Positions 1 through 45,229 of a stretch of DNA of 45,229 bases are shown here, piece after piece. The notes beneath the pieces are model-generated. The model was not told where the DNA came from and searched no databases. It saw only the letters and a list, made by a program, of their open reading frames with translations. Source of the stretch: a virus. The stretch spans positions 1 to 45,229 of the IMG/VR virus record IMGVR_UViG_3300049856_000077. One strand, written 5' to 3'. The position numbers and the translations under genes were made by a program. Position 1 is the stretch's first letter. The number at the start of each line of letters is the position of its first letter.

Positions 1-157
1 TCACCATTCGCTAATATGCCGGACCATTCTCTACTCAAATTCAGGCCTGTTCTCACATTGGAGCAGATACGACACATAGTTCATCTCACAAAAGAAGATG
101 ATATTGCAACTGATTTTGGTGAACTAGAACCAACTGGTACACATCAAAAACATCAGA
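1..157. repeat. Left copy of terminal overlap (157 bp)
   Basis: These bases recur at 45073-45229. Bases 32-157 are identical in the two copies. The first 31 bases differ at positions 15, 21, 24 and 31, and all four changes are silent in the gene that spans the join. The simplest reading is the overlap of a circular or circularly permuted assembly, with two strain variants at the ends. A true direct terminal repeat is the alternative. Confidence 0.9.
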
Positions 158-9062: not shown

Positions 9063-11300
9063 ATGGCTGATAATATTCTCTTCCTCGGCACTTACGCAGA
9101 TAAACCATATCTTCCCTATCTCAAGGGATGTGTTGGTTCTGCGAAGTGCTTTGTCATTACTGAACAAATATCCACTCTTTACGAGATAGGTACATATTGT
9201 AAACAAAGGGGAATCACAGGTGTCATTACTACATCAGCATACACGTTACAGAAGTTACTGCCTTCTAATACATCAACAAAACTGCCCTCAATTGATGACT
9301 ATGCAGGTAGCTTATTCAAGAATGCCGGACTTGAATACGTTATACTTGATCCCCTTGCACAACTTCTATCGGTACCTTATGGCCAGTTCATGGCCAAGAG
9401 ATACATTTCTAAACTTACTGCAAAAGCAGGATGGTTCCCACAATCTCCCCAGTTCAATTGGTGCATTCTAACTGCATCTAACATCGAGGCAGAATATGAT
9501 CGAGTATCTTCCTGGGAACTCTGTGCTTTCGACATTGAGACGTTCCAAAAGAATCTGGCAATTCGTTGCATCGGTTTTACTTTTGCTACTCTTTCTAACG
9601 GTTATTACATCACACGATCTCTTGTCCTTCCTATGGATTCTGAGTTCGCCTGTGTGTGGGCAGGAAAGTTTCTCTCTACACGATCAGCTAAGATTGCTCA
9701 GAATGGTAAGTATGATATTAACTATCTGCTTCGTTATGGCATTGTTCCAAACAATTATGTATGGGATACAGCTGCGCTCATGCATTGCTGGTATTCTGAA
9801 CTCCCGAAAGACTTGGCGTCACTCTCCGCGTTCTTTGTAAGAGAGGCAATGTACTGGAAAGATCTCGCAGAATCATCTGATCTAGAAACATATTACTTAT
9901 ACAATGCAAAAGACACACATCAGACATTGCTTGCATTTCTCGGATGGATACGAGAAGCGCCATCCTGGGCCAGAACTAATTACATTGCAGAATTCCCTCT
10001 CCAGTTCCCATGCATCATGGCAGAAATGCGTGGATTCAAGCGAGATACAGAAAGATTGGAGTTTGCCCGAAATGAAATCAGGCCTAAGATTGCCAATAAG
10101 TTATTGCTTCTCCAGCAGTCACTGGGCAAGCCAAATTTCAACCCTAATTCTCCAAAGCAAGTTGCACAGTTACTCACTGTACTTGGCTGCAAGGACATAC
10201 CTTCGACAGAAGAATCTGATCTGCAGAAAGCTGCTCTCAGGCATCCTCTAAACTCCTTTTTCATAAATCTGATTCTAGACATACGTGGTGATCGGAAATT
10301 GATTAGCACATATTTGCGGACTGATGAAGATATCACACCTAAGAAACCAAAAGGAAAGAAGGAATTAAATGGTAGAATCCTTTTCGCTCTTAATCCACAT
10401 GGCACCGACACATCAAGGTTGGCAAGTAGAGAGCATCATTTTTGGTGCGGACTGCAAATCCAAAACATTCCCAGGGGGAAAACAGTTAAGCAAACATTCG
10501 TGGCTGATGACGGATTTCTTTGGGGAGAATCTGATCTCGAACAAGCCGAGTCTAGAGACACCGCTTATATTACCGGAGACCCTGCTCTCATCAGTGCAGT
10601 ATCCAGCGGAAGAGACTTTCACTCAGTTAATGCTTCTAGCTTCTTTGGAGTGCCTTACGAAAAGATTTACTCTGACCTCACTAAGAAAACTCTCGATACG
10701 CCACTACGAGATTTGGCAAAACGCGTCAATCATGGAGCTAACTATAACATGGGATGGTTCGTCCTCATTAACACAATGGGCGAAGATAAGATTAGGCAAG
10801 CTCAGAAGTTACTTGGCCTCCCTAGTAAATGGACACTACGAGAAATTGCTGAGCACTTGCTTGCTGTGTTTACTCGTACTTATCCTGTGGTCAGAGTGGA
10901 CTATCAAAACTGGATTAAACTTGTGGTTCCCCGTGACCGGATGCTTACTGGCGCTACTGGTTGGACTCGATATTGTTTTGGCGAACCAGGAAAAAGTAAG
11001 CAAGCATTGAATGCATATGTCGCACACTGCCCACAATCTCTCAACGCACAGGTGCTTAATAAAGCTTGGATGGCTGTGTTCTATGAAGTAGCTCTCCCGA
11101 ATCAGAAAGATTTCAAACTCATTGCACAGATTCATGACTCAATTCTATTCCAGTATAGAGTAGGACGTGAGGATCTGGCACAGAAAGTTAAGCAATTGAT
11201 GGAAATCCCTGTAACTATAAAGGATATTAAAGGAGTGCAAAGGACATTCACTGTACCCGCCGCATTGAAATTTGGTAAAAAATATTGGAGTGAACTATGA
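9063..11300 (+). CDS. DNA polymerase, A family, with 3'-5' exonuclease
   Basis: Replicative polymerase of 745 aa. Exonuclease motifs: FDIET (Asp157, Glu159), NGKYD (Asp218) and YNAKD (Asp284). Polymerase motif A is SDLEQAESR (Asp491, Glu496). Motif B is RDLAKRVNHGANYNMG (Arg549, Lys553, Tyr561). Motif C is QIHDSILF (His691, Asp692). There is no 5'-3' exonuclease domain. Two residues are unusual: His557 falls where E. coli Pol I has Phe762, and motif C reads HDS instead of the common HDE. The order of domains and the length resemble T7-like and other phage PolA enzymes. The next gene starts in its stop codon. Confidence 0.96.
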   Translation: MADNILFLGTYADKPYLPYLKGCVGSAKCFVITEQISTLYEIGTYCKQRGITGVITTSAYTLQKLLPSNTSTKLPSIDDYAGSLFKNAGLEYVILDPLAQLLSVPYGQFMAKRYISKLTAKAGWFPQSPQFNWCILTASNIEAEYDRVSSWELCAFDIETFQKNLAIRCIGFTFATLSNGYYITRSLVLPMDSEFACVWAGKFLSTRSAKIAQNGKYDINYLLRYGIVPNNYVWDTAALMHCWYSELPKDLASLSAFFVREAMYWKDLAESSDLETYYLYNAKDTHQTLLAFLGWIREAPSWARTNYIAEFPLQFPCIMAEMRGFKRDTERLEFARNEIRPKIANKLLLLQQSLGKPNFNPNSPKQVAQLLTVLGCKDIPSTEESDLQKAALRHPLNSFFINLILDIRGDRKLISTYLRTDEDITPKKPKGKKELNGRILFALNPHGTDTSRLASREHHFWCGLQIQNIPRGKTVKQTFVADDGFLWGESDLEQAESRDTAYITGDPALISAVSSGRDFHSVNASSFFGVPYEKIYSDLTKKTLDTPLRDLAKRVNHGANYNMGWFVLINTMGEDKIRQAQKLLGLPSKWTLREIAEHLLAVFTRTYPVVRVDYQNWIKLVVPRDRMLTGATGWTRYCFGEPGKSKQALNAYVAHCPQSLNAQVLNKAWMAVFYEVALPNQKDFKLIAQIHDSILFQYRVGREDLAQKVKQLMEIPVTIKDIKGVQRTFTVPAALKFGKKYWSEL

Positions 11301-11785: not shown

Positions 11786-13033
11786 GTGAAAGACTCATTC
11801 ATCAGGAGCTACTTAGAGTATCGCTCAGGAACAGAAGTACCTGTTTGTTTCTCTAGATGGGCAGCAATTGCAGCGATAGCAACAATACTATCTCGCAATA
11901 CTTGGATACAATTTGGGGATAAGGAAATATATGCAAATCAATATATCATGCTCATTGGATCAGCAGGAACTAGAAAGTCTACAGCGATTGATGGAGCATC
12001 AGACATTCTCCATTCAGCAGGGGTATCTAATTTCTCTGCTGAGAGAACATCGAAAGAGAAATTCCTCCTCGATCTTGCTGGAGAGTCAGACACTGGAGCG
12101 GGAGTTGACAATATACTGGAGAGAAATCTTGGATTTGATCAAGACGATGCCAGTGTCCACCCCCTCAATATTTATGTTGGGGAAGCTAATGACTTTTTCG
12201 GTGTTGGAAACATAGAGTTTCTTTCTATGCTAGGGAATCTCTGGGATTGGACAAAGAAGAAGCCATATGAGAACCGAATTAAAACAGGAAAGAGTGTTGC
12301 AATTACGAATCCGATATTGAATATCTTCGCAGGTAATACTCCTGCTATGTTTGCTCATTCTTTCCCTCCAGAAATAATAGGACAGGGATTCTTTAGTCGT
12401 CTACTTCTAGTATATGGAGAACCAAATGGTAAAAAGATTTCCGACCCGCAACCTTCTGATCCGGACCACACTGCCACAATACTTACAAAACTCAGAACCT
12501 GTAGCCAATTCAATCCAGGTACATTGGAGCGAAGTGATTCCGCAAAACAGTTATTGTCTCATATCTATGAAACCACCAAAGGATCTGGCGATTCAAGATT
12601 TGATTCATACTATAATCGAAGATTCACACATCTTCTTAAACTCTGCATTGTCATCGCCGCATCTAACAGATGCAGAGTTGTGGAGAAAGATACAGTTATC
12701 GAAGCCAATACCTATCTTTCCTACATTGAAAGCCTTATGCCAAAAGCCCTTGGAGAATTTGGGAAAGCTAGAAACTCTGACATATCTCACAAAGTCCTCG
12801 GCTTTATTGAGTCACGTGATGGATGCTCTATCAAAGAGATACTGAAATTTGTTGGTACTGATTTAGAGAAACCATCAGATATAGGAGACATATTAAAGAA
12901 ATTACAGATGAGTGAAAAGATTCAGAGTTCGAATGGTATCTTCCTCCCCATTCGCCAGTTAGGTCTATCAGATAAGAGTGATGTAATAGACCTGAGTTAT
13001 CTAAGTGAGGAAGAGTTAGCAGTGAAAGGATGA
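11786..13033 (+). CDS. DUF3987-like replication ATPase, 415 aa
   Basis: Starts at GTG 11786 with no strong ribosome-binding site. The N-terminal segment SRWAAIAAIATILSRNTWI and Walker A GSAGTRKST (residues about 58-66) fit the DUF3987 family of phage and plasmid replication proteins, relatives of primase-helicase C-terminal domains. EANDFF and LNIFAGNTPAMF...GFFSRLLLVY are the conserved middle motifs. The C-terminal 80 residues look like a winged-helix domain. It may act as helicase or initiator with the polymerase upstream. No separate primase is seen, so host DnaG is a likely partner. Confidence 0.82.
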   Translation: MKDSFIRSYLEYRSGTEVPVCFSRWAAIAAIATILSRNTWIQFGDKEIYANQYIMLIGSAGTRKSTAIDGASDILHSAGVSNFSAERTSKEKFLLDLAGESDTGAGVDNILERNLGFDQDDASVHPLNIYVGEANDFFGVGNIEFLSMLGNLWDWTKKKPYENRIKTGKSVAITNPILNIFAGNTPAMFAHSFPPEIIGQGFFSRLLLVYGEPNGKKISDPQPSDPDHTATILTKLRTCSQFNPGTLERSDSAKQLLSHIYETTKGSGDSRFDSYYNRRFTHLLKLCIVIAASNRCRVVEKDTVIEANTYLSYIESLMPKALGEFGKARNSDISHKVLGFIESRDGCSIKEILKFVGTDLEKPSDIGDILKKLQMSEKIQSSNGIFLPIRQLGLSDKSDVIDLSYLSEEELAVKG

Positions 13034-13043
13034 GGGTACCCAT

Positions 13044-13392
13044 ATGAACAAAGAGAAAATTGCACAGGTGTGTCATGAAGTTAATCGTGCTTATTGTGAA
13101 GCATTAGGAGATCATAGCCAAGTAGCTTGGAATGATGCTCCTGAATGGCAACGTAGTTCTGCACGAATGGGAGTTGATTTACATTTCATGGGTGATTTTG
13201 GTCCAGAAGCAAGTCATATTAGTTGGGCCAAACAAAAGTTGGAGGAAGGATGGAAATGGGGACCAGAGAAAAATATTGAATTGAAAGAGCACCATTGTCT
13301 TGTCCCATTCTCTGAACTTCCAGTTGCACAACAAGCTAAAGATTTTTATCTTTCGTGCAGTTGTTCATGCATTGAGAGGAGAAGTGAAATGA
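13044..13392 (+). CDS. RyR-domain protein, interrupted by a frameshift at a T5 run
   Basis: The first 101 residues contain a ryanodine-receptor repeat domain, with motifs such as NRAYCEALGD, WQRSSARMGVD and LEEGWKWGPEKN. As written, the frame runs on through CSCSC into the next gene. If one T of the run 13343-13347 is removed, the reading becomes DFIFRAVVHALRGEVK and stops at TGA 13390-13392, the usual RyR ending. That stop overlaps the ATG of the next gene. An indel, in the phage or in the assembly, is the simplest cause. RyR proteins are common in phages; their role is not settled. Confidence 0.82.
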
Positions 13393-13661
13393 ACACAGGG
13401 CAACACAGAATAGTTGCAGGAACTAAAGCAGCACGCCAAATTGAGTCACAAGCATCCACAATTGCACAATTAAAGAGGCAAGCTGATGGCTCACTTGCAA
13501 TAGTAAGGGGGGAAACCGCAATAGAAAGGAAGATACGAGAAGATAGAGAAAGATGGAATGCAGTCATTGCAGATAGGAAACTTCTGAAAGCTGCACAGAA
13601 AAGAGCACAGAGGGAACGATTCCTCAATCCAGTTTTTCATTCAACAACCACGCCAGAATAG
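13389..13661 (+). CDS. Hypothetical basic helical protein, 90 aa
   Basis: ATG 13389 has a strong ribosome-binding site (AGGAGA) and overlaps the restored RyR stop in an ATGA. In the sequence as given it is fused in frame to the RyR gene, which I think is due to the upstream indel. The product is Arg/Lys/Ala/Gln-rich and mostly helical, possibly a coiled coil with nucleic-acid-binding charge. Function unknown. Confidence 0.7.
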   Translation: MNTGQHRIVAGTKAARQIESQASTIAQLKRQADGSLAIVRGETAIERKIREDRERWNAVIADRKLLKAAQKRAQRERFLNPVFHSTTTPE

Positions 13662-39700: not shown

Positions 39701-40190
39701 TTTGTGCCTCCACGGTTTTTCTCAAATTGGCGGATGGGATAGTGAGAAGGGACTGAGAATCTACTTGAATAACTTGATTATGAATATTTTTAGTAAAGTG
39801 CTGAATTAGGACAGGGGGAAGATTAAGTTGCAGAACTGTTTGTTTTGCTGTTAGAGCTTCTGGTGCAGACTGTCCACGTCGTTTTGCAGCATTGATTACA
39901 GAGAATGCTTTAATAATCTCCATTGGTCTGGTCATCATGCACAAAGAATGCTTCAGAGTTTCTAGAAGCTTATCCTCTAATGCATCAATTGTGGAATCTC
40001 GTTCATTATGTTTCGAGAGTGATTCGAATTTCTTTTCTACAACTTTCTGTGCGAAGTCATCATTGCTCAGGAGTTGGGATATACGAGATATATCTACTCC
40101 GAGAGCATTAGCTACAGCTTGTGGAGGAACACCCTGGCCGAGAAGAGTAAGTGCCCGATCTTCAGTTGTGGTAGTAGTTGAAGTGCTCAT
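39621..40190 (-). CDS. Terminase small subunit, 189 aa
   Basis: Probable DNA-recognition subunit. A helix-turn-helix lies at about 14-42 (TLLGQGVPPQAVANALGVD, then SRISQLLSND). A helical oligomerisation region follows and then a Thr/Pro-rich C-terminus. It lies upstream of the large subunit. The start overlaps the previous stop by ATGA. Confidence 0.82.
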   Translation of the reverse strand: MSTSTTTTTEDRALTLLGQGVPPQAVANALGVDISRISQLLSNDDFAQKVVEKKFESLSKHNERDSTIDALEDKLLETLKHSLCMMTRPMEIIKAFSVINAAKRRGQSAPEALTAKQTVLQLNLPPVLIQHFTKNIHNQVIQVDSQSLLTIPSANLRKTVEAQNVSPRTGSLPAPTTTETNRSEQRTSA

Positions 40191-41386
40191 GGTGTCTGAT
40201 AACGATCAATAATTGCTTTAACTGATGGATCCATGTCAAATTTAGGTGTCACAGTTAATGCATCTGTCTTAATCATATCACGAGTGAATCCATCTTGTAT
40301 GTCTGGATCGAATGATTTAATCTTACGAGAATCATTCCACATCTCTTCAGTTACTTTAGCTTCTGCTTCGCCTTGAGTCTGCCGATAGCGGGCATACGCT
40401 TTACGATCCACATTAATAACTGCTTCCCTGTCCATGGTGAGTTGCTTATTCAATGCAAAGATGGAAGCATCTGCACCAGCACCACCTGGATATTTAGCAT
40501 CTAGATCAGCTAGCTGTTGAGAAATATTCTTCTTTGCTCTATCCAGTCGTCCACCATATTCAATGAAGTTAGCAGGATTCTGCCCACCTGTCATTCCAGT
40601 TCTGTACTGCACAGCATGTTGGAGCTCATGTAGAAAAGAAGACATGAAATCGGATTCTGAAGAATGTTCTGCAACTTTAATAAGTCCTTTTCCTCCATTG
40701 GCAGATGGATCATATGATGCTGAACTACGAGAATTGACCAGTGCACGAACTTCTATATCTGCGAGATCTGCGAGTTGTGGGTCATTCTTGAGTTGCTGGA
40801 GAAGTTTGGGATGATCAAGAATATCTGAGAGTTTACCTGTGTCTGCAATACGAACAGCACCAGAAGTAGCGTCTTTAGCCAGGTTACCACCAAAAATAAA
40901 TTTCGCATCATTATCTGGAATAATGCCTTTCATGATCTTCCCATCATGTTTCCCCCAGAATGCTCCAGTTGCATCATATATCTCTTTAGCAGTTTTACCT
41001 GCAGCTTTCATATTGGTTGCAAGAACTTGCTGAATTGCAGAAATTGCAGCTCTAGATGGAACAATCATTCCACCTAATGCAAGTGCTGTTCCTTTTGCTG
41101 CACCAGCAGGACTCAACAGACCTCCAACTGCTTCAACAGAATCTTGTACTACTCCAGAAGAAGGAGTTTCTAGGCCGAAAAGATTGTTAATACTCTTGGA
41201 TCCTCCAATTGGAGAAGAATCTGCGCCTTCTAAACCTTTTCCAGACACCACACCCAATAAAAGATTCGCAAGATCAGTTCCACCACCTACAATTTGGCCT
41301 GGTACTCTCTGTGCACCACGCAAAATATTGCGAGCAACTGAGTTAACTAGTTCGTTACCTTGCAGGAGGGGGCGTGGTTGTGGCAT
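40187..41386 (-). CDS. Metallopeptidase-like virion protein (LPD23-type), 399 aa
   Basis: First gene of the late operon. The N-terminal half is Gly/Ala-rich with hydrophobic segments (SPAGAAKGTALALGGMIVP). From about residue 135 it has KEIYDATGAFWGKHDGKIMKG, LADLADIEVRA and FLHELQHAVQ (HELQH 253-257), the pattern of the large-polyvalent-protein-associated domain 23 family, a zincin-like fold. It may be carried in the virion and delivered to the host, or act in head maturation. Leader AAGGA lies 11 bases before ATG 41386. Confidence 0.75.
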   Translation of the reverse strand: MPQPRPLLQGNELVNSVARNILRGAQRVPGQIVGGGTDLANLLLGVVSGKGLEGADSSPIGGSKSINNLFGLETPSSGVVQDSVEAVGGLLSPAGAAKGTALALGGMIVPSRAAISAIQQVLATNMKAAGKTAKEIYDATGAFWGKHDGKIMKGIIPDNDAKFIFGGNLAKDATSGAVRIADTGKLSDILDHPKLLQQLKNDPQLADLADIEVRALVNSRSSASYDPSANGGKGLIKVAEHSSESDFMSSFLHELQHAVQYRTGMTGGQNPANFIEYGGRLDRAKKNISQQLADLDAKYPGGAGADASIFALNKQLTMDREAVINVDRKAYARYRQTQGEAEAKVTEEMWNDSRKIKSFDPDIQDGFTRDMIKTDALTVTPKFDMDPSVKAIIDRYQTP

Positions 41387-41418
41387 ATGTGGGGCATCCT
41401 TGAGTAATCTCAGTTAAT

Positions 41419-41427
41419 ATTATAACA
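41419..41427 (-). promoter_or_regulatory. Extended -10 promoter of the late operon
   Basis: On the minus strand the sequence reads TGT-TATAAT, a perfect -10 with the TGn extension. No good -35 is present at 16-18 bases, which is common for extended -10 promoters and for those needing an activator. Transcription would start about 25 bases before the first late gene. It is the only clear late promoter I find. Confidence 0.6.
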
Positions 41428-41519
41428 CCCAACTGAGCACGTACACGTGGGGATGCATATATGGAAACAATATTGTGCTATTGACGTACTCGTTTGGAAA
41501 ATTTTAGGAAAATTTAAGT

Positions 41520-41540
41520 GGGTCTTTAGGATATAGACCC
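41520..41540. other. Hairpin between late promoter and origin
   Basis: GGGTCT (41520-41525) pairs with AGACCC (41535-41540) around 9 bases. On the left is an AT-rich stretch with AAATTT/AAAATTTT blocks. There is no U-tract on the plus strand. In the 775-base gap 41387-42161 the rest of 41541-41816 holds no convincing gene or promoter. Confidence 0.45.
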
Positions 41541-41816
41541 AAGCTCGCGACCAAAAAGGCCATGCCCCTCCCTGCTAATTGCGAATCACTCTCATTTAGA
41601 TTCACAGTGTATACAATTATACAGCATACACATACGCATTCAGCCCATGAAGACACTAGAATAGTCGGACTAGTATGTGACTGTACTGTATGGTATAGAT
41701 ATGGCCTGATTGCATGTAGCAGACAATATAGGCACGGATATTGCTAATAGCACATACTATGCCAAAAACCCCACAATATCAGGTAGATGCCCCATATTGG
41801 TGCGAATATAACAAAC

Positions 41817-42083
41817 TGTGGATAACGTGTTGTTTATAGGAGAATTGTGTGCATAAGCTGTGCATAAGCTGTGGAGTGTTACAGTGTAAAGAAAATCGGC
41901 AGACTGCGCAGTAATCTACTGTATGGACATACAGGAAAACGCGTGTAAGTCATTGATTTGTCGGGAATATTGACAGGTGATGAAATAATGAGCAGGTGTC
42001 GCATTGGTGACAGTGTGGATAACTGGTGGATAAGGTTTGTAAGTGGTTGATTTATATGGGGTTTCTAAAATAAGTTATCCACA
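41817..42083. other. Probable replication origin with DnaA-box cluster
   Basis: Five perfect DnaA boxes (TTATNCACA) lie within 267 bases: minus-strand orientation at 41817-41825, 41848-41856, 41859-41867 and 42014-42022; plus orientation at 42075-42083. A sixth at 42025-42033 has one mismatch. Two boxes are repeated at exactly 11 bases, one helical turn. AT-rich segments suitable for unwinding lie between and to the left. Such a cluster is what bacterial oriC and DnaA-dependent plasmids use, so host DnaA is the likely initiator. Confidence 0.8.
41919..41934. promoter_or_regulatory. 16-bp dyad in the origin
   Basis: CTGTATG-GA-CATACAG is a perfect 7+7 inverted repeat with a 2-base centre, placed between the left and right DnaA-box groups. 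A shorter palindrome, ACTGCGCAGT, lies at 41903-41912. The form is that of a dimeric regulator site. The binder is unknown. Confidence 0.5.
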
Positions 42084-42092
42084 GGGGGTATA

Positions 42093-42120
42093 TTGGCATG
42101 ATTGATGCTACTACTATAGG
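42093..42120 (+). promoter_or_regulatory. Candidate promoter for gene 42162
   Basis: TTGGCA (42093-42098), 16 bases, TATAGG (42115-42120). The match is moderate. It begins 10 bases after the last DnaA box and reads into the 226-aa gene, so initiation complexes could affect its use. Confidence 0.45.
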
Positions 42121-42161
42121 GCACGATTGGTGCGTGAAACATTTTCTAGGAGTTAAATCAA

Positions 42162-42842
42162 ATGAGTGCAATATTCAAAACACACACTTCTATAGTGTAT
42201 GAATCCAAAGGCAAGAATAAGACTATCGCGCCACTTGGTAATCGATTGGTGATTACAAAAGCGATGCCAGACAAGGACGGTAATTTTGGTCCACATCTCC
42301 AGCAGACAATGGCAACGGCAGTTCCGGTACTCCAACTGACTGATGCGGATTTTGCCAATACGGAACTGCGTGATGCAGTATCCGCATATTTTCTGGAAGT
42401 GCAACATAAGGTCATTGGACAACGCATTCGGGATGATGGCCAGAAAACACACATTGATTCTGATATTGATGTTAGTGCGTGCTTGCGTTATCTGGCTGCT
42501 GAGGCATCAGGAGATAAGTGGGATGCCACTAGGATTGCAGAATGGTTCGCTGCAACGATTGGTGATGCATTGGGTGTGAAGTTGTTGGAAGTGAACCCGA
42601 CACTGGATAATACAGGACTGGAGAAACTGTTACTCGCTAACACTGATCTGTTTGTGAAGTGCATGACCAAGAGAGCGACAAGCATTACTGTGAAACAGGC
42701 ACAAACATGCGTAAATCGCTTACGCCTGATTGATGAATCCAAATGGGATAGAGCAGCACGGAAATTTTATGCTCGGATGGATGCGATTATTAACCCGCCT
42801 GAAGTGTCGGAAGTCATTGAAGAGAATCTTGGTTTGGATTGA
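42162..42842 (+). CDS. Origin-adjacent protein with NLGLD tail, 226 aa
   Basis: AGGAG lies 9 bases before ATG 42162. The protein is alpha-rich after a short beta N-terminus and ends EENLGLD. It resembles the 227-aa protein at 3690 in length, in a central RIRD segment followed by an acidic region with Cys, Trp and similar helices, and in a C-terminal LRL...F...D...I..ENLGL pattern. I read them as distant paralogues. Codon bias is stronger than in most early genes. Being next to the origin, it is a candidate for an initiator or origin-binding factor, but I see no known DNA-binding motif. Confidence 0.85.
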   Translation: MSAIFKTHTSIVYESKGKNKTIAPLGNRLVITKAMPDKDGNFGPHLQQTMATAVPVLQLTDADFANTELRDAVSAYFLEVQHKVIGQRIRDDGQKTHIDSDIDVSACLRYLAAEASGDKWDATRIAEWFAATIGDALGVKLLEVNPTLDNTGLEKLLLANTDLFVKCMTKRATSITVKQAQTCVNRLRLIDESKWDRAARKFYARMDAIINPPEVSEVIEENLGLD

Positions 42843-43132: not shown

Positions 43133-43437
43133 TTTTCAGAATCTGAATCTGGCATCATAGCCACTTTGCCAGAAAACCAAAATGCCAAAGTCACTTTTCG
43201 ACCCGTCCCTAGGGGTCATGTGTCTCTGGCATCTATATTAGTACACTCACAGTATCTATCTGCACCATGCTAGGTATAGAGAGTATAGTAATATAGATAT
43301 ATACATATTTTCATTTTCATTTTTGATACCCTACAGAATAGGCGCTATGTATAACACAATACTCCCTACGGTCGTACAATACAGTCTAGTATTGAGAATA
43401 TTGTGCCCTATGCATCGATGGTCCTACGGTGACCCCC
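43133..43437. other. Non-coding region with recurring TGGCA motifs
   Basis: No credible gene. TCTGGCAT or close variants occur at 43148-43155, 43166-43173 (reverse), 43182-43189 (reverse) and 43225-43232. Others follow at 43448-43455, 43482-43489 (reverse) and 43598-43605. There is a small CCCTAGGG-centred stem (about 43199-43216), an AT-rich block (about 43284-43326), a hairpin CAATAC-AGTCTA-GTATTG (43377-43394) and a repeated CCTACGGT (43365-43372, 43423-43430). This looks like a regulatory or second origin-like region. Confidence 0.55.
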
Positions 43438-43466
43438 TTGACACGGGTTTGGCATTCTGGTATTGT
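43438..43466 (+). promoter_or_regulatory. Strong early promoter
   Basis: TTGACA (43438-43443, perfect), 17-base spacer, TATTGT (43461-43466). It lies 60 bases before the 100-aa gene and reads into the run of small genes that crosses the genome join. A palindrome lies over the -10 and start site. Confidence 0.72.
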
Positions 43467-43491
43467 GGCAGACTGGTCGCCATGCCAGAAT
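43454..43491. promoter_or_regulatory. Palindromic operator-like element over the promoter
   Basis: ATTCTGG (43454-43460) pairs with CCAGAAT (43485-43491), and inside TGGC (43466-43469) pairs with GCCA (43479-43482). It spans the -10 and the expected transcription start. It could be a repressor site, or the 5' end of the mRNA folded as a stabilising stem. Confidence 0.55.
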
Positions 43492-45063: not shown

Positions 45064-45229
45064 ATGAGCAATTCACCATTCGCTAACATGCCAGATCATT
45101 CTTTACTCAAATTCAGGCCTGTTCTCACATTGGAGCAGATACGACACATAGTTCATCTCACAAAAGAAGATGATATTGCAACTGATTTTGGTGAACTAGA
45201 ACCAACTGGTACACATCAAAAACATCAGA
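45064..45229 (+). CDS. 5' part of the gene that continues at base 1
   Basis: Contains the true start (ATG 45064, MSNSPFAN) of the gene seen without its start at 1-348. It matches that copy in protein sequence throughout the overlap, in spite of four base differences. On the circular molecule the two parts make one 118-residue gene. Confidence 0.85.
   Translation, partial: MSNSPFANMPDHSLLKFRPVLTLEQIRHIVHLTKEDDIATDFGELEPTGTHQKHQ
45073..45229. repeat. Right copy of terminal overlap (157 bp)
   Basis: Counterpart of 1-157, with an offset of 45072 bases. Identical over the last 126 bases; four silent differences in the first 31. Unique genome length is therefore 45072 bp if the molecule is circular or circularly permuted. 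Confidence 0.9.

What the first reader, a model, noticed from the sequence alone, without database searches (positions are those of the whole stretch)
41817..42083. Bacterial-style DnaA-box origin in a lytic phage
Five perfect TTATNCACA boxes and one near match lie in 267 bp, two of them 11 bp apart. By simple base counting far less than one is expected by chance. The boxes lie between the two divergent arms. Most phages with their own polymerase use a phage initiator or primase, so a host-DnaA-type origin is unusual. No phage primase is obvious either, which fits reliance on host DnaA and DnaG.
Basis: partly seen in the sequence, partly recalled or inferred. Interest (0 to 1): 0.78.

Follow-up and report, generated by a model that had tools for sequence, protein, structure and literature searches.

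The report
DnaA-box array at phage early promoter
A virulent-looking phage carries five perfect binding sites for the host replication initiator DnaA next to its early promoter; comparison with relatives suggests they tune early gene expression that feeds a separate, better conserved replication origin about 1.1 kb downstream, rather than being the origin themselves.

Summary
The boxes are real: five exact TTATNCACA and one near match in 267 bp, in the spacer between divergent arms. 300 simulated genomes never exceeded two. Relatives L009/L010, L044 and L016 keep 3-6 boxes at the same place, two phased at -22 and +21 from an IHF-type site. But equally close relatives (L015, L018, L011, L048, L049) have none, so an essential DnaA origin is unlikely.

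Two findings change the picture. First, the boxes sit in an early control region with sigma54-type -24/-12 elements, an IHF site and, in several relatives, NtrC-box palindromes; unrelated phages show the same combination (9 of 16 phage IHF+sigma54 modules carry boxes, against 1 of 119 bacterial ones). Second, a better conserved origin candidate lies 0.3-1.5 kb downstream: inverted TTCTGGCA iterons around very unstable DNA, in boxed and box-less relatives alike.

Best reading: DnaA (with IHF) modulates a host-regulated early promoter whose transcript runs through the iteron origin, as DnaA does at lambda pR/ori-lambda. A DnaA origin in the spacer remains the main rival. The annotated 'primase' is predicted to be an MCM-like AAA+ helicase. 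All binding is inferred from sequence.

The parts
41387..42161 (.). Divergent intergenic control region between late (leftward) and early (rightward) arms
   Evidence: ORF map; same position and flanking genes in relatives
41817..41825 (-). DnaA box TTATCCACA (exact)
41848..41856 (-). DnaA box TTATGCACA (exact)
   Evidence: 11-bp direct repeat TGTGCATAAGC
41859..41867 (-). DnaA box TTATGCACA (exact)
42014..42022 (-). DnaA box TTATCCACA (exact)
42025..42033 (-). Near-match DnaA box TTATCCACC; occupies the -22 position from the IHF core that is an exact box in L009, L044, L016, L237 and L246
42075..42083 (+). DnaA box TTATCCACA (exact), on the far side of the IHF site
42039..42056 (-). IHF-type site TATAAATCAACCACTTAC (fits WATCAANNNNTTR); a weaker second copy at 41945-41962
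   Evidence: the same 18-mer recurs in intergenic DNA of many unrelated phages
42093..42109 (+). Sigma54-type -24/-12 element TTGGCATGATTGATGCT facing the early arm
   Evidence: conserved at this place in most close relatives, perfect TTGGCACG-N4-TTGC in L048 and L049
41749..41765 (-). Sigma54-type element TTGGCATAGTATGTGCT facing the late arm (weaker)
   Evidence: outward-facing pairs also in L048, L049 and L014
41788..41804 (.). NtrC-box-like palindrome TGCCCCATATTGGTGCG (2 mismatches)
   Evidence: strongly enriched upstream of such modules
42162..42842 (+). First early gene, 226 aa, conserved in the family, function unknown
   Evidence: AlphaFold model without a PDB fold match
43148..43490 (.). 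Candidate replication origin: TCTGGCAT/ATGCCAGA iterons in inverted orientation around AT-rich DNA (least stable 60 bp of the genome starts at 43270)
9063..11300 (+). DNA polymerase A family
   Evidence: phrog_17, PF00476
11786..13033 (+). 415-aa replicative helicase (annotated 'DNA primase' in 119X); MCM-like AAA+ fold, no primase domain recognised
1..157 (.). Terminal direct repeat (other copy 45073-45229, 97%)

Best explanation
The boxes form an accessory DnaA-binding array inside the phage's early control region, not the conserved replication origin. Host DnaA, probably with IHF bound between two phased boxes, modulates a host-dependent (sigma54-type) early promoter at 42093. The transcript covers the first early gene and then the iteron/AT-rich element at 43148-43490, the likely origin, where an unidentified initiator and the phage MCM-like helicase and PolA would start synthesis. 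[quoted passage not shown] Shown by sequence: box array, phasing with the IHF-type site, sigma54-type element, downstream iterons, and their conservation pattern. Inferred: protein binding, promoter activity, direction of the DnaA effect, and origin function of the iterons.
For: Box cluster non-random and kept at the same site in L009/L010, L044 and L016. Fixed spacing of boxes at -22/+21 from the IHF core in L009, L044 and L016, and -22 in L237 and unrelated L246. Sigma54-type element upstream of the early gene in 8 of 10 close relatives; in 28 further family records the pattern occurs 24 times against 1 for the backward control, although most of those sites were not placed relative to genes. 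In phages, IHF+sigma54 modules carry DnaA boxes in 9 of 16 cases against 1 of 119 in bacterial genomes. Reciprocally, sigma54-type sites are 18-fold denser near phage DnaA arrays than elsewhere in the same loci. Iterons with very unstable DNA lie downstream of the promoter in boxed and box-less close relatives. Box loss between sister phages. DnaA acts this way at lambda pR/ori-lambda (PMC3985674 and its references).
Against: No binding or transcription data, and the host is unknown. In the window the sigma54 element is only a moderate match (2 mismatches to YTGGCACGNNNNTTGCW) and the NtrC-like site is far from the early promoter. The iteron element is 1.1 kb from the boxes, is not proven to be an origin, and no phage initiator was identified. 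DnaA-box/IHF sandwiches are also typical of true origins.
Confidence: 0.45

Rival explanations
1. The DnaA boxes with the IHF site are a DnaA-dependent replication origin: DnaA and IHF open the spacer and load the phage helicase, giving bidirectional replication into both arms.
For: DnaA box - IHF - DnaA box arrangement as in oriC and several plasmid origins; array at the divergence point; no recognisable primase in the phage; tandem DnaA arrays occur in at least 120 other viral contigs, most without a sigma54-type site nearby; skew changes sign near the spacer.
Against: Boxes absent from close relatives with the same replication genes. No exceptionally unstable DNA next to the boxes: the least stable spacer segment is about 360 bp away, and the genome minimum is at 43270. 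The skew turn has the opposite sign to oriC, is 1-2 kb off and is shared by box-less genomes. A better conserved iteron/AT-rich candidate exists.
Confidence: 0.27
2. The array is a DnaA sink: incoming and replicating phage DNA titrates DnaA, stopping new rounds of host chromosome initiation.
For: High-affinity TTATCCACA/TTATGCACA boxes, patchily gained and lost as an accessory trait; up to 10 boxes in some other phages.
Against: Fixed phasing with the IHF site and strong association with sigma54-type promoters are not needed for titration; only five boxes per genome in the window.
Confidence: 0.12
3. The motif is recognised by something other than DnaA (a phage regulator or initiator) that happens to prefer TTATCCACA-like sequence.
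For: No footprint data; boxes mostly in one orientation and tied to the promoter.
Against: No gene was found that is shared by the boxed genomes and absent from the box-less ones.
Confidence: 0.1
4. Chance or compositional artefact.
For: None found.
Against: 0 of 300 simulated genomes reached more than 2 boxes in 267 bp; synteny in relatives.
Confidence: 0.01

Closest known systems
Lambda pR / ori-lambda with DnaA (transcriptional activation of the origin)
   Same: DnaA sites at early promoter DNA; transcription runs downstream through an iteron + AT-rich element; DnaA influences replication through transcription (PMC3985674, and references listed there)
   Different: Sigma54-type rather than sigma70 promoter; phased IHF site; virulent-looking phage with PolA and an MCM-like helicase; no O/P homologue identified
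Bacterial oriC and DnaA/IHF plasmid origins (pSC101, R6K, RK2, P1 oriR; from general knowledge)
   Same: TTATNCACA boxes flanking an IHF-type site; iterons plus AT-rich DNA elsewhere in the region
   Different: Boxes are about 1.1 kb from iterons and AT-rich DNA; not conserved in close relatives; no Rep/dnaA gene adjacent
Cyanophage promoters using the host nitrogen regulator NtcA (PMC3037559)
   Same: Phage genes placed under a host nutrient-stress regulator, by sequence prediction
   Different: Here NtrC-box/sigma54-type elements, single divergent control region, coupled with DnaA boxes
Fredfastierviridae (Pseudomonas phages 119X and PaP2-like) and Polaromonas phage Tiera
   Same: Gene order, terminase (about 32% identity), PolA, helicase annotated 'primase', RecD/Dda-like helicase
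   Different: 119X, Tiera, P5 and EBPR podovirus 3 have no DnaA-box cluster

Membership tests
DnaA-dependent replication origin (oriC-type) | Cluster of TTATNCACA boxes beyond chance | tested here: met
DnaA-dependent replication origin (oriC-type) | IHF-type bend site phased with boxes | tested here: met
   (sequence only)
DnaA-dependent replication origin (oriC-type) | DNA unwinding element immediately beside the boxes | tested here: not met
   Least stable spacer DNA about 360 bp away, genome minimum at 43270
DnaA-dependent replication origin (oriC-type) | Cumulative GC-skew minimum at the site | tested here: not met
   Detrended maximum 1-2.2 kb to the right, same in box-less relatives
DnaA-dependent replication origin (oriC-type) | Conserved among close relatives | tested here: not met
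   Present in L009/L010, L044, L016 (and 1-2 boxes in L235, L237), absent in L015, L018, L011, L013, L014, L048, L049
DnaA-dependent replication origin (oriC-type) | DnaA binding and autonomous replication | not testable with these tools
   -
Sigma54 (RpoN) promoter | -24 TGGCA / -12 TGC with GG-N10-GC spacing (consensus TGGCACnnTTnTTGC, PMC8743547) | tested here: met
   window copy is moderate, L048/L049 perfect; RpoN dependence itself not tested
Sigma54 (RpoN) promoter | Upstream enhancer for an activator (NtrC box TGCACCAnnnTGGTGCA) and IHF between | tested here: inconclusive
   IHF met; NtrC-like sites strongly enriched over the set, weak and displaced in the window, absent in L048, L049 and L014
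Iteron replication origin (43148-43490) | Repeated short iterons beside AT-rich DNA | tested here: met
   6 motifs in 1 kb against 0.46 expected, at the genome's least stable DNA; repeated in relatives
Iteron replication origin (43148-43490) | Cognate initiator protein | tested here: inconclusive
   No initiator recognised; MCM-like helicase present

The most novel reading that the evidence does not exclude
Virulent phages of several unrelated families have independently assembled one control module (DnaA boxes, NtrC-type enhancer, IHF site, sigma54 promoter) so that early transcription, and through it origin activation, is gated by the host's replication initiator and nitrogen-stress machinery.
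Probability: 0.4. Interest if true: 0.82.

Novelty: new variant of a known kind. Interest (0 to 1): 0.62.

Why it matters
If right, infection timing in a group of environmental phages is wired to the host's DnaA level and to the sigma54 stress sigma factor, a link not found in the papers that could be searched here. It offers testable host-gating of lytic growth. It also shows that a DnaA-box cluster in a phage should not be annotated as an origin without checking relatives.

Tried and rejected
DnaA-trio (BUS) reading of TTATCCACAGGGGG...CTACTACTA at 42075-42115: not kept in relatives and overlaps the -12 element, dropped on inspection. Sigma70 reading of TTGGCA...TATA: spacing mostly 13-15 nt, too short; L011 and L013 instead show TTGAAT-N17-TATAAT at that place, read by eye. 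GTAAGTNGTTGATTTATA as a family signature: rejected, since it recurs in many unrelated phages as an IHF-type site. 'No phage primase' as simply wrong: the protein annotated primase folds as an MCM-like helicase. Gene content separating boxed from box-less phages: none found. Similar phages by megablast: none. The conserved AAAATTTTAGGAAAAT...AAAAAGGCC block next to the terminase arm was considered as a packaging site, but ends of the 119X, Tiera and P5 records did not settle it. The structure of the first early gene gave no fold match, so a single-strand-binding role is unproven.

Full report
OBSERVATION. The window holds 8 exact matches against 2.4 expected and five fall in 267 bp; 300 simulated genomes never placed more than two in such a span. 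They lie in the 775-bp spacer between the two divergent arms of a circular or terminally redundant 45-kb genome (157-nt end repeat).

WHICH PHAGE. The terminase is about 32% identical to Pseudomonas phages 119X and PaP2-like (119X is placed in Fredfastierviridae) and to Polaromonas phage Tiera, and 43 viral contigs carry closer homologues at 50-71%. Gene order around the spacer is conserved: a roughly 216-aa first early gene, the spacer, then small terminase, large terminase and portal. The host is not known. No integrase was recognised among the window proteins scanned against PHROGs; the largest protein and several small ones were not scanned.

CONSERVATION OF THE BOXES. L009/L010 (5), L044 (6) and L016 (3 plus near matches) keep boxes in the same place. 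L235 and L237, more distant members, have 1 and 2. L015, L018, L011, L013, L014, L048 and L049 have no cluster. In the terminase tree L044 is sister to L015/L018, so boxes come and go on short time scales. Among 24 further near-complete relatives only one has even two boxes close together. 119X, Tiera, P5 and EBPR podovirus 3 have no cluster.

WHAT SURROUNDS THE BOXES. In L009, L044 and L016 two boxes sit at -22 and +21 from the core of an IHF-type site (TATAAATCAACNACTTAC); L237 and L246 have the -22 one, and in the window the -22 place is taken by the near match at 42025. Just downstream, before the first early gene, is a TTGGCAY-N6-TGCW element with the GG-N10-GC spacing of sigma54 promoters. 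It is the best or among the best genome matches in most relatives, perfect in L048 and L049, and present also where boxes are absent. L011 and L013 have a sigma70-like TTGAAT-N17-TATAAT there instead (seen by eye). The window, L048, L049 and L014 have a second, outward-facing sigma54-type element toward the late arm. The published consensus sequences for RpoN (TGGCACnnTTnTTGC) and NtrC (TGCACCAnnnTGGTGCA) were checked in PMC8743547.

THE COMBINATION RECURS. These phages are not all related: L145, L239, L234, L242 and L246 have other terminases, portals or replication genes, or no match to the window proteins compared. Related pairs inflate the counts somewhat. NtrC-like palindromes are found upstream of 15 such modules at 5.1 per kb (up to 3 mismatches) against 0.06 per kb elsewhere in the same loci; the reversed consensus gave none. 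Conversely, near 120 tandem phage DnaA arrays the sigma54 pattern is found 17 times in 85 kb against 11 times in the other 969 kb. Most arrays (about 109 of 120) have no sigma54-type site, so DnaA arrays are not tied to it.

WHERE IS THE ORIGIN. The cumulative GC skew, detrended, peaks 1-2.2 kb to the right of the spacer in six of six genomes, three of them box-less, and its minimum is 26-32 kb away, not where the arms converge. The sign is opposite to that at bacterial origins, so skew marks the region as special but does not say origin or end. The least stable 60 bp of the window genome is at 43270, and it lies between inverted arrays of TCTGGCAT/ATGCCAGA iterons at 43148-43490. The same arrangement, with up to six tandem 8-bp iterons, follows the early promoter in boxed L009, L044, L016 and box-less L018, L014, L011, L048; L049 has it between promoter and first gene; L015 has it weakly, and more distant L041 has a related array. 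In L015 the least stable DNA is in the spacer itself. This is a better origin candidate than the boxes: better conserved and placed at or near unstable DNA.

REPLICATION GENES. The phage encodes a family A polymerase, a RecD/Dda-like helicase, a Sak4-like recombinase and a PD-(D/E)XK exonuclease. The 415-aa protein called 'DNA primase' in 119X is predicted to fold as an MCM-like AAA+ helicase (pTM 0.80; best 50 PDB matches all MCM chains, E down to 1e-9).

MECHANISM. The arrangement resembles lambda, where DnaA affects transcription that activates ori-lambda downstream (PMC3985674 and its references). I therefore favour an accessory DnaA/IHF array that modulates a host-dependent early promoter feeding transcription into the iteron origin (0.45). 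A DnaA origin in the spacer is the main rival (0.27), then DnaA titration (0.12) and another binding protein (0.10). All protein-DNA interactions are inferred from sequence.

LITERATURE. Searches of the open-access library found no description of sigma54/NtrC-controlled early transcription in lytic phages. The nearest idea is NtcA sites in cyanophages (PMC3037559). Subscription papers were not searchable. Predicted phage origins with DnaA boxes have been reported by Ori-Finder, for example in PMC11512268.

Noticed in passing
window 43148-43490: Inverted iteron arrays TTCTGGCA around the least stable DNA of the genome, conserved in close relatives: probable phage replication origin.
   Followed up: yes
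window 11786-13033: Protein annotated 'DNA primase' in phage 119X is predicted to be an MCM-like AAA+ helicase, unusual for a phage of bacteria.
   Followed up: partly
L236:1-650; L056 and L134 near the IHF motif: Perfect or near-perfect NtrC-box palindromes in phages, up to five in a row in L236 (TGCACCAAGTAGGTGCA and others); L056 encodes a transposase-like protein.
   Followed up: no
L016, L011, L015/L018, L014, L048 spacers: Fur-box-like sequence (for example GAGAATGAGAATCATTCTC in L016) on the terminase side of the spacer; degenerate in the window.
   Followed up: no
window about 41493-41580 and relatives: Block conserved in all close relatives: AAAATTTTAGGAAAAT, then GCGCGC-like and AAAAAGGCC..CCCC, next to the terminase arm; possible packaging or late-control site.
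   Followed up: partly
L009, L015, L016, L013, L011 spacers: Repeated palindrome-like GTTAGTTAGTGCTTACTTAC, perhaps a regulator operator.
   Followed up: no
L457:about 9893-10663; L476:8781-9300: DnaA arrays followed by three to five sigma54-type elements, most of them facing the same way.
   Followed up: no
window 40187-41386: 399-aa gene between small terminase and spacer, not at this place in relatives; weak match to a putative metallopeptidase (DUF6782) and a large polyvalent-protein domain.
   Followed up: no
window 13044-13661: Early protein with a RyR domain (PF02026).
   Followed up: no
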